Source: SAR92 clade bacterium H455 (GTDB taxonomy: Bacteria; Pseudomonadota; Gammaproteobacteria; Pseudomonadales; Porticoccaceae). Taken from it: a stretch of DNA of 64,000 nucleotides. Positions 1 through 54,050 of the stretch are shown piece by piece. Numbering within the stretch: position 1 is the stretch's first letter; each line of letters begins with the position of its first letter. The DNA is taken from contig CP103416.1 of assembly GCA_024802545.1 (NCBI GenBank), forward strand, positions 1,674,001 to 1,738,000. Direction: 5' to 3'. The notes beneath the pieces were generated by a model. The model saw nothing but the letters and a program-made list of their open reading frames with translations, was not told the origin of the DNA and did no database searches. A program made the position numbers and the translations under genes.

Positions 1-212
1 TCCGGTCGCTGATAATTTTTAACCGTCTTGCCAATGCGATTGAACTCTTGCTGAATACTCAGGTAGGCTAGGGTGGCCACCCGCAGTTCCGATAAGATAT
101 CGGTGCTGATTTTATAGTCACCGCCAGCGCGATTTATCAGCTCATGGTTGAGTGGCAGGGTGTTGATTCTTGGCTGGTTTACAGTATCTGGCGATGTAAT
201 AGGCTGATTCAT
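1..212 (-). CDS. Partial protein of unknown function, N-terminal part only
   Basis: An open frame runs on the minus strand from an ATG at 210-212 to the left edge of the window without a stop, giving about 70 residues of the N-terminus. An AGGA sequence lies about 10 bases upstream of the ATG, which supports the start. The visible part is hydrophilic, has no signal peptide or membrane segment, and contains a likely helical stretch (residues 40-65, with ELRVATLAYLS). I do not recognise the family. It is transcribed in the same direction as the c-di-GMP genes that follow on its upstream side, but a 259-base gap separates them, so shared function is not implied. Confidence 0.55.
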   Translation of the reverse strand, partial: MNQPITSPDTVNQPRINTLPLNHELINRAGGDYKISTDILSELRVATLAYLSIQQEFNRIGKTVKNYQRP

Positions 213-1311
213 GGTGCTGGTAACATCCTGTTTTGGGTTTAAGGATCCTTTTGTATCCCGGCATCTGTCGGCATATTGTGAGTTATATAACCAACTCCTT
301 TAATCAGCCCCTGTAATTAGAAAAAGGCTCAGAAAAAGAATAGCAGAAAATTAGCTAGGCGCAGACTGCAAATATCCTCGCTCAGTGGGTTTTGCTACGG
401 CTGTCACGGCCTAGCCTAAGGGACCAGGCTATTAAAAAGCATTTAAATCAAGTGGCTTACAAATCAGCTTACTACCAACCAGGCTTATTAGTAAGCCACT
501 GCCTAAACTGGTCGGCGGGCATGGCCTTACCTATATGATAGCCCTGGGCATAGGTGCAACCCAACTCTGTCAGCAGTGCCATGGTCTCTGCATCTTCAAC
601 ACCCTCAGCTACGGTTTCCATCTGGAAACGCTTGCCCCAGTCGAGAATCAGTTTGACTATATCCAAGTCGATTAGATTGTTGCGCATATTTGAAATAAAC
701 GATTTGTCGATTTTCAGTTCGTTTGCTGGAATAAATTTAAAATATTCCAGAGATGAATAGCCGGTGCCAAAGTCATCAATAGCGATCCTGACGCCAAGTT
801 CCTTAATTTTTTTTAGCGCTTGAAAGCCCTGCTCCAAATCTTGCTGAATGGTCGATTCGGTGACCTCGATGCATAGATCCGAGGGCTCGGCGCCCCATAG
901 ATTAAGGCTGGACTCGATGGTCTCAAATAGCTGGGGAGAGTGTAGACAGGACGCCGAGAGATTGATTGCAGTAGTAATATTTTGACCACGCCAATTGGCC
1001 GACTCCCTGATCGCAGTTTGCAGGGTCCAGGCAAATAAATCATCCATGCGCCCGGACTCTTCGATAATGACCACCAGCTGTTCCGGATTGACGCCGTGGT
1101 CCCTATCATTCCACCGAATAAGGCCTTCGGCACCATGGATATGGCCATCGGCAAGACGGATCTGGGGCTGATAAAAGAGCTCAAAGCTATTCTCGTTGAG
1201 GGCATCCAGAGCCTTCTTTTCAACTGCTATTTTATGCCGGGCTCTATGGCGTGCGGAAGCCTCGTCGACAACATAGGCACGGCGTAAATGCCGGGCCTGC
1301 TTGGCTGCTGC

Positions 1312-1314
1312 CTA
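1312..1314 (-). other. In-frame TAG between GGDEF and EAL domains
   Basis: The plus strand reads CTA here, giving TAG on the coding strand. Upstream residues end KLLQSA and downstream residues begin AAAKQAR, which together match the final helix typical of GGDEF domains, so the stop lies inside a domain and not in a linker. Other genes in the window (fabV, aceF) use TAG as a genuine stop, so the codon is not generally reassigned. Confidence 0.85.
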
Positions 1315-1674
1315 AGCACTCTGCAGCAGCTTTTCAGCATCTGAAGCTGGCTGCTTAGAGTCAGTGATAGTGGCAAAGCCTATATGGGCCTCTAAGTTTA
1401 AGGACTCAGTGCCAATAGTGAATGGACTGCTGACTGCATGGATAATTTTGTTCGCCACCAGAGGAATCAGCTGAGCATTGAGCAATGGAGAAATAATCAG
1501 GGCAAACTTATCGCCGTCGGTTCTACGGCAACCTAGTGGGTGCTTTGGGATTGATGCAAGGCGCTGTTGCAGTTCGCCGAGGACAAGATCACCGGCCAGA
1601 TAGCCAACCCGCTGATTGACCTGACTAAACTGTCGAAGATCAATCAATGCCAAAACTGTGAGTTGGTCACTTTC

Positions 1675-1799
1675 TTGAGAGCTGTCTTGAGAGTTGTCTT
1701 GAGAGTTGTCTTGAGAGTTGTCTTGAGAGTTGTCTTGAGAGTTGTCTTGAGAGTTGTCTTGAGAGTTGTCTTGAGAGTTGTCTTGAGAGTTGTCTTGAG
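1675..1799 (-). repeat. 12-bp tandem repeat, nine perfect copies, coding
   Basis: The unit GAGTTGTCTTGA (plus strand) occurs nine times in a row from 1691, with degenerate copies on both sides. Because 12 is a multiple of three, the array stays in frame and encodes a (DNSQ)n linker near the N-terminus of the GGDEF-EAL product. Copy number can change without a frameshift. The repeat also keeps other frames open on both strands, which creates spurious ORFs. Confidence 0.95.
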
Positions 1800-1889
1800 T
1801 GCTGCTGAGACAGCCTTCCAGAGCCCCGAGTAGCGCTGAACGGTCAATTGAGGAGTAAGGTGAATGGGTCCGTGGGTGCTTAGTCATTT

Positions 1890-3143
1890 TCAGATATACA
1901 GGGTTTCTGGATCCAGGCCAAAGGCACCAGGTTCTAGGGTTTTTGCGATTTCGATATTTTGGTTCCCAGTTTCCGTGGCGGCGGACAAGTCCATTTCGAT
2001 AAAGTCGGCGCGCTGCTGTTTATCCGAATCCAGTATCACAAGCACCTGTGGCCGCAGACGCTTACCTGGATTTTCCTTGACTACAATGCCCACTTCACCG
2101 GAAGTTAGTTCGACTAGGGTGCCAGTGGGATAGACTCCCACTGCCTGGATAAAGGCTTCGATTAATTCAGGTTGAAAGTCATAGCCGCGCCATTCATACA
2201 TCTGTTTGATTGCCTGGGCATGAGTAATAGGTTTGGCATAGACACGCTGGCTGGTAATGGCATCGTAGCAATCGGCTATGGCAGCGATACGCGAATAAAG
2301 AGGTATTTGGGTGCCTTTAATAGCCTCTGGATAGCCACTGCCATTAAAGCGTTCGTGGTGTGAGGCAATCATATCAATCACCGCCTGGGGCATTACCCGG
2401 GATGAGTCCTTGGCCATCTTTAAACTGAGATCCACATGCTTTTTTATCAGTGCAAACTCGCGCTCGGAGAGCTGCTGTTTTTTATTTAGGATCAACGGCG
2501 GAATTTTGAGCTTGCCTATATCCAACAACATGCCGCCCATGGCCAGCAATGACAGATCTTTTTTCGGCAGGCCTATTTGGCGTCCGATCACCGTGCACCA
2601 GATAGCCACGGCAATACAGTGACTATAGGTGTAGGAGTCCTGAGATTTGAGTCGTGCCAGCCAGATACTGGCACCAGGGTTGCGGGAAATACTGTCGACT
2701 AAAGGGTTTATCGCCTCGCTGAGCTGGGTAATGTTGATAGTCTTACCATTGCCAATACGGCTGACCATACTGTCGAATTCAGCGCGAATATTTTGATAGG
2801 CAACCTGAGCCACAGGGATCTCTTGGCTGACCGAGCTCTGCTCTCTGTAGCTGACTGGTTGATGTGTGGCAATCTCGGCTTTAAAGGGTCGCGCCACTAT
2901 ACTTTGAGGTCTTTTATTGGGGGATGCAGGGGTAGTATCAATACTGAGATTGGCGAGGCTTTTGCTGCTGTCGATATACACATAGTCGCAATAAAACCCG
3001 AGTTTTTTAACCTCGGTTTGATTACGAACCATAAAACCTTGAAGGCTAAAGGGTGTCTCGAGCCAGGGTCGATCCAAGCCAGAGACGTACATACCCGGCT
3101 GGAGATCTTGGATATAGACTTTTTTACTCTGTAGTTGTCCCAA
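1890..3143 (-). CDS. HD-GYP domain protein with N-terminal DUF3391
   Basis: This 417-residue soluble protein has a DUF3391-like N-terminus (about 1-130) and an HD-GYP domain (about 150-340) with HHERFNGSGYP and IADCYDAIT. HD-GYP proteins normally hydrolyse c-di-GMP at a bi- or trinuclear metal site. Here the HD dyad that should read LLHDIGK reads MLLDIGK, so the histidine ligand is lost and catalysis is doubtful, although binding or interaction roles remain possible. The other histidines (SHCIAV, KKHVD, HHE) are present. The C-terminal 80 residues form a small extra domain seen in this subfamily. It is the first gene of a two-gene unit with the GGDEF-EAL gene two bases downstream. The ATG at 3143 is the first start in frame. 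Confidence 0.88.
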   Translation of the reverse strand: MGQLQSKKVYIQDLQPGMYVSGLDRPWLETPFSLQGFMVRNQTEVKKLGFYCDYVYIDSSKSLANLSIDTTPASPNKRPQSIVARPFKAEIATHQPVSYREQSSVSQEIPVAQVAYQNIRAEFDSMVSRIGNGKTINITQLSEAINPLVDSISRNPGASIWLARLKSQDSYTYSHCIAVAIWCTVIGRQIGLPKKDLSLLAMGGMLLDIGKLKIPPLILNKKQQLSEREFALIKKHVDLSLKMAKDSSRVMPQAVIDMIASHHERFNGSGYPEAIKGTQIPLYSRIAAIADCYDAITSQRVYAKPITHAQAIKQMYEWRGYDFQPELIEAFIQAVGVYPTGTLVELTSGEVGIVVKENPGKRLRPQVLVILDSDKQQRADFIEMDLSAATETGNQNIEIAKTLEPGAFGLDPETLYI

Positions 3144-7269: not shown

Positions 7270-8334
7270 ATGAGCGCAAAACTTCAGTTAGTGGAAAATC
7301 TCAGCCAACGCCAGGTGGTTGAAGACTATCTCAGCCGCGTGCAGCCTGAGTCTGAAATTAGCGCCGCGCGGGTCATCGAGTTGCAGCAGCGCATCAAGCA
7401 GCTTCTGATCGAAAAAGATGCTGTGCTCATTGCGCACTACTATACAGATCCACTGATTCAAGCCCTGGCCGAGGACACTGGCGGTGTGGTCTCCGATTCC
7501 CTGGAGATGGCACGCTTTGGCAAAACCCATAGCGCCCAGACCCTAGTGGTCGCTGGGGTAAAATTTATGGGCGAGACAGCGAAGATTTTGACTCCCGAAA
7601 AACGTGTTTTGATGCCGACTCTAGAGGCAACCTGTTCTCTAGATGTGGGCTGTCCAGCGGATGAATTTGCCGCCTTTTGCGACGCACATCCAGACCGCAC
7701 TGTGGTGGTTTACGCCAATACCTCAGCGGCGGTGAAGGCCAGAGCGGACTGGGTGGTGACATCCAGTATTGCCCTTGAGGTTGTGGATCACCTTGACAGT
7801 CTTGGTGAGAAAATACTCTGGGCACCGGATAAATATCTGGGAAGCTATGTGCAGAAGCAGACCGGCGCCGATATGTTGCTCTGGGATGGTGCCTGTATAG
7901 TCCATGAAGAATTTAAAGCTCAGGGTATTGCCGATTTAAAAAAGGTTCACCCTGATGCCGCAGTGCTAGTTCATCCTGAGTCTCCCCAGTCGGTGATTGA
8001 TATTGCCGATGCTGTGGGCTCAACCTCACAGTTAATTGCTGCAGCGGCTAGCTTGCCTCAGTCCAAAATGATTGTGGCTACAGATCAGGGTATCTTCTTT
8101 AAGATGCAGCAAGCGGTTCCCGACAAACAGCTGTTGGTAGCCCCGACCGGCGGCAGCGGTGCAACCTGTCGCAGCTGCGCGAGCTGTCCCTGGATGGGTA
8201 TGAATGATTTGGAAAACCTTCTGGCGGCCCTTGAACAGGGTAGTAATGAGGTCTTTGTCGACCCTGAAATCGCGACTGAAGCGATGAAGTCACTGGGTCG
8301 GATGATTGAATTCCGCGAGCAGCAGAGCGCTTAA
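7270..8334 (+). CDS. nadA: Quinolinate synthase
   Basis: NadA condenses iminoaspartate with dihydroxyacetone phosphate to quinolinate, the second step of de novo NAD synthesis, using an oxygen-sensitive 4Fe-4S cluster. The 354-residue length is usual. The three cluster cysteines correspond to C122 ([10 protein letters not shown]), C209 (GACIVHEEF) and C306 in [21 protein letters not shown] near the N-terminus and the substrate-binding HPESP and TGGSGATC motifs are present. The ATG at 7270 gives the expected N-terminus. Its stop codon lies inside the first unit of a 23-bp repeat array. Confidence 0.96.
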
Positions 8335-8566
8335 TGCCGATCGCTAAGGCCTTTTGCTGTCGACTGCTAAGGGCTCTTAATACCGATCGCTGATGGCTCT
8401 TAATGCCGATCGCTGATGGCTCTTGATGTCGACCGCTAAGGGCTCTTAATACGGACCGCTAAGGGCTCTTGATGTCGACCGCTAAGGGCTCTTAATACGG
8501 ACCGCTAAGGGCTCTTGATATCGACCGCTAAGGGCTCTTAATGCTGCCCGTTTAGGGCTCTGCGCC
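8326..8566. repeat. 23-bp tandem repeat array, ten units, starting at the nadA stop
   Basis: Ten consecutive 23-bp units run from 8326 to 8555, followed by a partial unit. A unit reads GGCTCTTAAT..CGACCGCTAAG with variation. The first unit (8326-8348) includes the last two codons and TAA of nadA. Units 5-6 and 7-8 are an exact duplication of a 46-bp pair. At two places in each unit the sequence is almost always TAA or TGA (CTTAAT/CTTGAT and GCTAAG/GCTGAT). There are no unique spacers, so it is not CRISPR. It fills most of the 270-base gap between the convergent nadA and M48 protease genes. Confidence 0.96.
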
Positions 8567-51735: not shown

Positions 51736-52071
51736 GTGGGTTACGTTTATGTGCTTTTGGCTTGGTTGATTGTGAGTCTTGTTTGGGGCGGGATTGGTGT
51801 GGCTGTTGGACCTGGAATAATGATGTTGATTATTGGATGGATAGTTGGCGTCTTTGGCTGTTTATACAGCTTCGGTGAGAGGCTATATTGTGGTCAAGCT
51901 CAGTTACGCTTGGCTGGGTTAATTGTTTTTGTAGTGAGTTTTGTTGTAACTTTGCTGGTTTTTCCAAGCCTATCGCTGACATTGTCCGGTTATCTTTTTC
52001 TTACGGTTTTTATACTGATTCCGAGCTATTTGCCTCTCTTCCTAATTAGGAAATATTCGTTTAAATTTTAA
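51736..52071 (+). CDS. Small membrane protein, unknown function
   Basis: A 111-residue, very hydrophobic protein with four predicted membrane helices (about 5-28, 30-48, 58-80, 83-103) and a basic end (RKYSFKF). It starts with GTG; GGAG lies about 10 bases upstream. Codon use is rich in TTT, ATT and TTG and differs from neighbouring genes, and no family is recognised, so it may be recently acquired or fast evolving. Its end overlaps by 11 bases the end of the convergent G3P dehydrogenase-like gene. Confidence 0.55.
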   Translation: MGYVYVLLAWLIVSLVWGGIGVAVGPGIMMLIIGWIVGVFGCLYSFGERLYCGQAQLRLAGLIVFVVSFVVTLLVFPSLSLTLSGYLFLTVFILIPSYLPLFLIRKYSFKF

Positions 52072-53299
52072 CCTTTGATGTATCACCCATTCTGTAGAAG
52101 TCTTTCTTTTTACTGGCGTCTATTTGCTCGGCTGCTTCTGCTTGGTTGGCCTCCAGTAGCATAGATTTCAAAATCTTTTTCAGTGCGTTTTTAGCGGTGG
52201 CGCGATAGCCTGTGAGTTTGCCGCCATAGATTGCTAGGTAGTTATTGGTTTCCGCGAACTGGACTTCACGGCTGCGCTTGAAGGGGTTATTTCCACTTGC
52301 AGGCAAGACTCTCAGGCCGGCCCATGATTCACTCGGCTGGTGATTGAAGTGAGGGAAATGACTGTGAATCACCTCTAGCAGGTAGCTGGTTTCTTCTTCG
52401 CTGGGTGCTACGCCGTCGGGGTTGCCTTCAAATAATTGCTCTGTGGTGCCGAGTAATGTGCCGCCTTTAAAGGGCAGCACAAAAATGGCTCGGTGATCCT
52501 CTTTGGCTTCTATATAAAAGCACTTTTCGCTGAGCTGCTGGGTAAATTCTAGGTGAGTCCCCTTGACCAGATCTATGGCTATTGTGGGCGGTTTGGGCTC
52601 TATGGATTCAGCTATTTGATTGACCCATGGACCACCGGCGTTGACCAGTGTGCGGCATTGTAGGCTGCTGATTTCATCGCCTATGGTGAGGCTGACCAAA
52701 TAGCCATTGTCGTTTTCTTCTGCGGTTAAAAACTTTGCCGGGCAGAGTAGGGTGGCGCCATATTTTTTTGCGGAGGCGACTACTCGTTGGGTTAATATTT
52801 TGTCGTCGGTCTGGGCATCTTGATAGATGAACACAGAGTCTAGGTCGCAGGTGTTTAGACCCTCAAGTTTATGCCATTGTTCGCGCGGCAACTGCTTAAA
52901 GCCGGCCAAGTTATTTCGTCCTGCCAGCAGCCGATAAAGTATTAGTCCGATGCGCACCTGCCAGGCTTTAAAACGATTACCTTTGTAAACCGGTAGGTAG
53001 AACCAGTTGGGTTTGACTATGTCTTCGGCAATATCCAGCAGGATGCGGCGTTCGCGAAGACTCTCGTAAACAAGGCCAATTTGTAATGTCTGTAAGTAGC
53101 GCAAACCACCATGTATAAGCTTGCTGGATTTGGAGGAGGTGCCGGCGGCCCAGTCGGTCTTTTCTACAAGTGCCACGGAGAGTCCGCTAAGTGCCGCCGC
53201 CTGGGCTACGCCTGCGCCTTGAATGCCACCGCCGATTACGCAGAGGTCGTAGATTTGTGATCTAGGGATTTCCATATCGTTCTTCATTACAAAACGCAT
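52061..53299 (-). CDS. FAD-dependent glycerol-3-phosphate dehydrogenase-like oxidase
   Basis: A DAO-family flavoprotein of about 412 residues with the N-terminal FAD-binding motif DLCVIGGGIQGAGVAQAAAL, the GlpD signature KTDWAAGTSSKSSKLIHGGLRYL, and LVKGTHLEF, GTTEQLFEG and YGGKLTGYRATA typical of GlpD. It should oxidise glycerol-3-phosphate to dihydroxyacetone phosphate at the membrane and feed quinones. E. coli GlpD has 501 residues; this one lacks most of the C-terminal domain. The start is uncertain (ATG 53299, 53287 or 53275). The upstream phosphodiesterase gene stops only about five bases earlier, so the pair forms an operon. Confidence 0.86.
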   Translation of the reverse strand: MRFVMKNDMEIPRSQIYDLCVIGGGIQGAGVAQAAALSGLSVALVEKTDWAAGTSSKSSKLIHGGLRYLQTLQIGLVYESLRERRILLDIAEDIVKPNWFYLPVYKGNRFKAWQVRIGLILYRLLAGRNNLAGFKQLPREQWHKLEGLNTCDLDSVFIYQDAQTDDKILTQRVVASAKKYGATLLCPAKFLTAEENDNGYLVSLTIGDEISSLQCRTLVNAGGPWVNQIAESIEPKPPTIAIDLVKGTHLEFTQQLSEKCFYIEAKEDHRAIFVLPFKGGTLLGTTEQLFEGNPDGVAPSEEETSYLLEVIHSHFPHFNHQPSESWAGLRVLPASGNNPFKRSREVQFAETNNYLAIYGGKLTGYRATAKNALKKILKSMLLEANQAEAAEQIDASKKKDFYRMGDTSKVKI

Positions 53300-53303
53300 T
53301 CCG

Positions 53304-54050
53304 TTATTTGAGTAGGCTGGCAATATCAAAGGTTTCAAACATGGCGACACCGCGTTCTGCCAGTTGATTGGCTAGTTTCGCGTTGCCCACTTCATAGGCA
53401 ACGAGCTTGCTGGTTAGTCTGTCTAGATTTTCTGCCTCGGGAATAATTTTGTAATCGACAAAAGTGTAGTCTCCGGCGATGGCTGTTATCTGGTCGCTGT
53501 GGATGTGGCTCCATTCCAATAGCACTGGGCCGGCTTGAGGCCAGCCGTTGGCTTTGGCAGTGGAAATGATGCTGTAGTCAAAGCTAATTAATACGGCGCG
53601 ATTGCGGATTGGTTCGAGCACTTGACAGACATTAGCGAGCATTATTTCGGCGCCAAATTCGGCGATGGATTCTTCTTTCAGCTCTACAAACAATGTTACC
53701 TTTGGATGGCTGAGAATAAGCTCAACCACCTGGGCCAGAGATGAAATGGTCTGGTCAATAAACTCTTCGCCGAGGCGTTCAGGTTCATAGGCGGGTAGAG
53801 CGATTAATTCGTTGCTATACAAAGCCGAGATCAAGCAGTCCTGGCCACTAACGCGCTGTAGATTGATATCGTGATACAGCATCGGCTGCTGGTCGAGACT
53901 CAGCTGAACGTCGATTTCTACAAATAAGGCGCCGGCTTCAATCGCCTTGCGCACTGACAATGCTGTGTTTTCTGGGTAGCCTGCTTGCAGTCCACGGTGG
54001 GCAACAAGGCGGTTGGCGGAGAGTTTTGGGCTTGTATTTTGCAGAGTCAA
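53304..54050 (-). CDS. Glycerophosphodiester phosphodiesterase
   Basis: A 248-residue cytoplasmic (no signal peptide) GDPD-family enzyme that releases glycerol-3-phosphate from glycerophosphodiesters. LVAHRGLQAGYPENT holds the catalytic His, Arg and Glu, followed by FVEIDVQLSLDQQPMLYHD with the metal-binding E and D and the second His. FVELKEES is the further acidic motif. Its product is the substrate of the oxidase encoded just downstream. The GTG/ATG start at 54050 is the first in frame; UgpQ is the closest type. Confidence 0.9.
   Translation of the reverse strand: MTLQNTSPKLSANRLVAHRGLQAGYPENTALSVRKAIEAGALFVEIDVQLSLDQQPMLYHDINLQRVSGQDCLISALYSNELIALPAYEPERLGEEFIDQTISSLAQVVELILSHPKVTLFVELKEESIAEFGAEIMLANVCQVLEPIRNRAVLISFDYSIISTAKANGWPQAGPVLLEWSHIHSDQITAIAGDYTFVDYKIIPEAENLDRLTSKLVAYEVGNAKLANQLAERGVAMFETFDIASLLK

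What the first reader, a model, noticed from the sequence alone, without database searches (positions are those of the whole stretch)
1312..1314. In-frame amber codon within the GGDEF-EAL protein
The frame and homology continue on both sides of one TAG, in the last helix of the GGDEF domain. It could be a recent inactivating mutation (CAG to TAG), an error or regulated read-through. No in-frame start lies between the stop and the EAL motif, so a full EAL protein depends on read-through.
Basis: partly seen in the sequence, partly recalled or inferred. Interest (0 to 1): 0.5.

Follow-up and report, generated by a model that had tools for sequence, protein, structure and literature searches.

The report
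Nonsense mutation truncating a c-di-GMP enzyme
In this marine bacterium a signalling-enzyme gene has one letter changed so that it ends early; close relatives have the full gene, so this is most likely a recent, ordinary gene-breaking mutation.

Summary
The in-frame TAG at 1312-1314 (minus strand, codon 192 of a 472-codon GGDEF-EAL frame) is real in the assembled sequence, and homology continues on both sides. The nearest relative, strain MOLA455 (SAR92 clade, about 94% DNA identity), has the intact gene.

Read-through is not supported: all 35 tRNAs found have sense anticodons, release factor 1 is present, TAG is an ordinary terminal codon, no special RNA fold surrounds the stop, and no ortholog shares it. 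In a 262-kb sample compared with MOLA455 it is the only mid-gene stop among 183 matched ORFs.

Selection after the stop looks normal on the branch since MOLA455, so the mutation is probably young. It removes the EAL domain. Both flanking HD-GYP-like proteins lack the HD histidine, so EAL was the cluster's only apparently competent hydrolase. One other ortholog (a metagenome assembly) has an independent TAG at another codon. Sequencing error cannot be excluded without reads. Ordinary, low interest.

The parts
1312..1314 (-). In-frame amber codon TAG, codon 192; Glu in the 13 other orthologs read
472..1887 (-). Interrupted GGDEF-EAL gene (472 codons counting both stops); its own last codon is TAG followed by TAA, where MOLA455 has CAG TAA
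1312..1887 (-). ORF left after the stop: 191 aa, GGDEF-like domain with signature DGDKF, cut near its end
472..1311 (-). Untranslated remainder with the EAL domain; first ATG/GTG/TTG in frame is GTG at 1074, after the EAL motif
1673..1799 (-). 12-bp tandem array, 10.6 copies, in frame (SQDN repeats), not seen at this length in the 13 other orthologs
1890..3143 (-). Upstream neighbour: DUF3391 plus HD-GYP-like protein, with LD in place of HD in 14 of 14 rows
1..212 (-). Start of the downstream neighbour, a second HD-GYP-like protein that continues off the window (genome 1673178 to about 1674212)

Best explanation
A recent nonsense mutation (Glu GAG to amber TAG) in the middle gene of a conserved three-gene cluster (HD-GYP-like, GGDEF-EAL, HD-GYP-like) of a SAR92-clade gammaproteobacterium. 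Translation should stop after 191 residues, leaving a GGDEF-like domain with a non-canonical signature, cut near its end. The EAL domain, the only domain of the cluster with the expected c-di-GMP hydrolase residues, should not be made. Shown: the TAG, the Glu codon in 13 other orthologs, the intact relatives, no suppressor among the tRNAs found, the degenerate HD motifs. Inferred: loss of phosphodiesterase activity, youth of the mutation, tolerance through the other EAL proteins of the genome.
For: Glu in 13 of 13 other orthologs, GAG in the 94%-identical MOLA455, gene intact there. Window and MOLA455 are sisters in the tree, support 100/99. Only mid-gene stop among 183 matched ORFs of a 262-kb sample. 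35 of 35 tRNA places have sense anticodons, prfA present, 48 of 56 compared terminal TAGs are TAG in MOLA455 too. dN/dS to MOLA455 is 0.100 before and 0.117 after the stop, and the window's own branch has 10 synonymous to 5 non-synonymous changes after the stop (P 0.0008 to 0.0037 against neutrality), so constraint held until recently. Seven EAL matches in the genome, this one included.
Against: Low dN/dS after the stop is equally expected if the protein is still made by read-through. No reads and no second strain of the species were available. The gene is not lost on its own elsewhere: the 14 of 50 genus genomes that hold it are the same 14 that hold the upstream HD-GYP gene, which speaks for usefulness.
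Confidence: 0.82

Rival explanations
1. Sequencing or assembly error: the strain really has a sense codon here.
For: The change is a single base, and the part after the stop shows no decay. If the genome is strain H455, whose published size of 2.96 Mb fits (identity not proven), it was sequenced on Illumina HiSeq and assembled with ABySS. A 12-bp tandem array, awkward for short reads, lies in the same gene.
Against: The array is about 360 bases from the stop. No other mid-gene stop in 183 matched ORFs of the sample, so the assembly is not error-rich.
Confidence: 0.1
2. Functional read-through: ribosomes pass the amber often enough to make useful full-length protein.
For: Purifying selection after the stop. 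A second species, G033/L112, has a TAG at another codon of the same gene with its downstream part conserved. The gene's terminal codon is also TAG where MOLA455 has CAG. Frequent read-through of in-frame stops in bacteria has been proposed (PMC7918605, abstract and first part of Results).
Against: No suppressor tRNA found, prfA present, ordinary fold (z -0.57), stop not conserved, TAG ends 57 of 186 matched ORFs.
Confidence: 0.05
3. The truncation is itself useful: the 191-aa GGDEF-like piece, or an internally started EAL piece, has its own role.
For: The neighbouring proteins of the cluster also have degenerate catalytic motifs and are conserved, so a non-enzymatic role for a piece is thinkable.
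Against: The stop lies within the GGDEF match; no ATG, GTG or TTG precedes the EAL motif and the CTG, ATT, ATC and ATA codons there have no convincing ribosome-binding site; none of the 13 other orthologs has this architecture.
Confidence: 0.03

Closest known systems
[quoted passage not shown] 2021, PMC7918605; abstract and first part of Results seen)
   Same: A single in-frame stop in a gene whose dN/dS stays well below 1 on both sides; that paper also finds that such stops tend to persist only briefly, on the scale of population polymorphism.
   Different: That study concentrated on stops shared by two or more species; this one is seen in one genome only, and the stop in G033 is at another codon.
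GGDEF-EAL proteins with a degenerate GGDEF and a competent EAL domain (c-di-GMP phosphodiesterases; solved homologs such as 5m3c and 4rnh)
   Same: Same domain order and fold family by sequence; the expected EAL residues are kept in the frame after the stop (residue roles recalled).
   Different: In this genome the frame is interrupted before the EAL domain.
MOLA455 ortholog (AZIN01000001.1, L104)
   Same: Same locus, about 94% DNA identity, same flanking HD-GYP-like genes.
   Different: Uninterrupted; no long SQDN array; ends one codon later.

Membership tests
Recent nonsense-mutated gene | Intact orthologs with a sense codon at the place of the stop | tested here: met
   13 of 13 other orthologs have Glu there; 12 of 13 have no internal stop, L112 has a TAG at another codon
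Recent nonsense-mutated gene | Change present in the DNA of the strain | not testable with these tools
   no reads available
Recent nonsense-mutated gene | Little decay after the stop | tested here: met
   dN/dS 0.117 after the stop against MOLA455; 10 synonymous, 5 non-synonymous changes on its own branch
Suppressed or recoded amber | tRNA with CTA anticodon, or lack of release factor 1 | tested here: not met
   35 tRNA places, none with CTA; prfA present above its cut-off
Suppressed or recoded amber | Stop conserved at the same codon in relatives | tested here: not met
   0 of 13 other orthologs
Suppressed or recoded amber | Full-length protein detected | not testable with these tools
   no proteome
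Diguanylate cyclase (GGDEF) | GG(D/E)EF active-site signature | tested here: not met
   DGDKF in the window; aligned solved homologs have GGDEF
EAL phosphodiesterase | Motif and metal-binding residues (roles recalled) | tested here: met
   E254, N309, E341, D371, D372, K392, E428, Q448 present and invariant in the 8-row alignment, but all after the stop; motif reads EGL, not EAL
HD-GYP phosphodiesterase (both neighbours) | HD dyad | tested here: not met
   LD in 14 of 14 rows for the upstream protein (solved homologs have HD); no H in the 13 rows covering the motif for the downstream one

The most novel reading that the evidence does not exclude
In this genus the only apparently catalytic gene of a conserved c-di-GMP cluster repeatedly acquires amber codons (2 of 14 orthologs, at different codons) while its sequence stays constrained; leaky or reversible ambers would then work as a lineage-level on/off switch for the phosphodiesterase, leaving the degenerate HD-GYP-like partners alone.
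Probability: 0.04. Interest if true: 0.45.

Novelty: new member of a known kind. Interest (0 to 1): 0.12.

Why it matters
It matters little beyond annotation: the gene should be marked as interrupted in this genome, and strain traits tied to c-di-GMP (attachment, motility) should not be taken as typical of the species. If the amber recurs in wild populations, it would show a phosphodiesterase being switched off repeatedly in an abundant coastal clade.

Tried and rejected
CAG-to-TAG origin: rejected, the 13 other orthologs have Glu. Suppressor tRNA: RF00005 search in this genome (35 places) and in G033 (30 places), then ARAGORN on all of them: no CTA anticodon. A CTA-loop plus T-arm pattern gave 8 places here and 3 in G033; ARAGORN finds a tRNA at two of these, Arg-TCT and Leu-TAG.

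Leaky TAG in general: terminal stops of this genome lie opposite a sense codon in MOLA455 for TAG in 4 of 56, TGA in 1 of 27, TAA in 0 of 99 (ends that did not align left out: 4). The reverse direction gives TAG 2 of 52, TAA 1 of 95, TGA 0 of 32 (4 left out). Two of the four TAG rows are the two pieces of this very gene and the other two have another stop within 6 codons, so I do not read it as leakiness; this result is nominally against my reading (Fisher P 0.026, computed from the stricter counts, 3 of 51 against 0 of 119).

Gene loss as a sign of disuse: not seen. The 14 of 50 genus genomes with this gene are the same 14 with the upstream HD-GYP gene.

Rows set aside for this genome: five MOLA455 ORFs with stops at codons 9 to 26 (M13, M30, M56, M61, M123; taken as over-long start calls, since the homologous frame goes on after the stop) and M100, beside tRNA genes. 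The reverse direction (186 ORFs of this genome matched in MOLA455) gave five rows at codons 5 to 25 and others in G53, G89, G120 and G157; G120 is a gene missing about 160 codons in MOLA455. So the sister has a broken gene of its own.

A TAA flagged in paralog L005 is its terminal stop. Stops flagged in other paralogs were not looked at. Of the 59 loci I used 13 as orthologs; the 46 others (L117-L162, at most 36% identity in the listing) were left out. In one search sites whose outgroup base matched neither sequence were not polarised.

No claim that anything is absent from print is made. Papers: PMC3907726 whole text; PMC10746254 passages; PMC7918605 abstract, outline and first part of Results; all others search listings only. 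One search term was masked in the answer.

Full report
Observation. The minus strand carries a frame (472-1887) with one internal TAG at 1312-1314, codon 192. Read through the stop, Pfam finds GGDEF at residues 68-201 and EAL at 226-454. The ORF really left is 191 residues. After the stop the first ATG, GTG or TTG in frame is GTG at 1074, residue 272, behind the EAL-motif Glu 254.

Origin. Thirteen orthologous loci were read besides the window. All 13 have Glu (GAA or GAG) at the TAG codon; the nearest, SAR92-clade strain MOLA455 (L104), has GAG and an intact gene, with matching blocks of about 94% DNA identity. So the change was most likely GAG to TAG, a G-to-T transversion, not CAG to TAG. 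The protein tree joins window and MOLA455 (support 100/99) and puts the only other interrupted ortholog, L112 (G033), in another group. L112 has TAG at a different codon, where 10 of the 13 others have CAG, one CAA and two GAG: two separate ambers in 14 orthologs. L112 is a metagenome assembly, and its stop could be strain mixture or error.

Identity of the genome. It is one contig of 2,957,583 bases. The SAR92 strain H455 has a published size of 2.96 Mb (PMC10746254, passages). This is a size match only.

How unusual. In a 262-kb sample (window plus about 100 kb on either side) compared with MOLA455, 183 MOLA455 ORFs had a match above 70% identity; this gene alone had a mid-gene stop, after setting aside five rows with stops in the first 26 codons and one ORF beside tRNA genes. 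In the reverse direction MOLA455 has at least one broken gene of its own, lacking about 160 codons (window 52061-53350). TAG ends 57 of 186 matched ORFs of this genome, and 48 of 56 compared terminal TAGs are TAG in MOLA455 too.

Read-through. The 35 tRNA places found all have sense anticodons and prfA is present. The stretch around the stop folds no better than shuffles (z -0.57; 51 of 200 shuffles fold at least as well). A nominal excess of terminal TAG opposite sense codons rests half on this gene's own two pieces. Background read-through cannot be excluded.

Age. Window versus MOLA455 dN/dS is 0.100 before the stop and 0.117 after it. On the window's own branch the part after the stop took 10 synonymous and 5 non-synonymous changes, on MOLA455's 16 and 5. 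Five or fewer of 15 is unlikely under neutrality (P 0.0008 if 75% of changes are expected to be non-synonymous, 0.0037 if 70%). Purifying selection thus acted for most of the time since the split, so either the stop is young or the product is still made. The numbers are small and the count is by simple parsimony.

Function. The part after the stop keeps the residues expected of an EAL phosphodiesterase (roles recalled), with the motif reading EGL. The GGDEF signature is DGDKF, where solved homologs have GGDEF. The upstream neighbour (1890-3143) is a DUF3391 plus HD-GYP-like protein with LD for HD in 14 of 14 rows, where the two aligned solved homologs have HD. The downstream neighbour, a second HD-GYP-like protein, has no such histidine in the 13 rows that cover the motif (window and 12 of 13 loci). 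The amber therefore removes the only apparently competent hydrolase of the cluster. Gene order is kept in the loci read, and 14 of 50 genus genomes hold both this gene and the upstream one. The genome has seven EAL matches in all, so general c-di-GMP turnover should go on.

Verdict. An ordinary, probably recent nonsense mutation, with a small chance of a base error and a smaller one of functional read-through. The amber in a second species and the 12-bp repeat expansion in the same gene are mild hints of changed constraint, and the bold reading of a switchable phosphodiesterase is kept at low odds.

Noticed in passing
window 1673-1799: In-frame 12-bp tandem array (10.6 copies, 99% alike) coding SQDN repeats before the first GGDEF strand; not seen at this length in the 13 other orthologs, MOLA455 having only a short SSLD repeat.
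   Followed up: partly
window 1890-3143 and window 1-212 (continuing off the window): Two HD-GYP-like proteins on either side of the GGDEF-EAL gene, both without the HD histidine in the rows read, and conserved in that state across the genus loci.
   Followed up: partly
L112, internal codon 224 of the 435-codon frame (G033:C78): Independent in-frame TAG in the ortholog of another species, at a codon that is CAG in 10 of 13 others.
   Followed up: partly
window 472-477: The gene's own end is TAG TAA where MOLA455 has CAG TAA, so the two proteins differ by one terminal residue.
   Followed up: partly
window 52061-53350: FAD-dependent oxidoreductase (DAO) ORF, intact here; in MOLA455 about 160 of its codons are missing and the two ends lie in different frames.
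   Followed up: partly
window 8330-8561: Tandem array of a 23-bp unit, about 10 copies, starting at the end of ORF 7270-8334.
   Followed up: no
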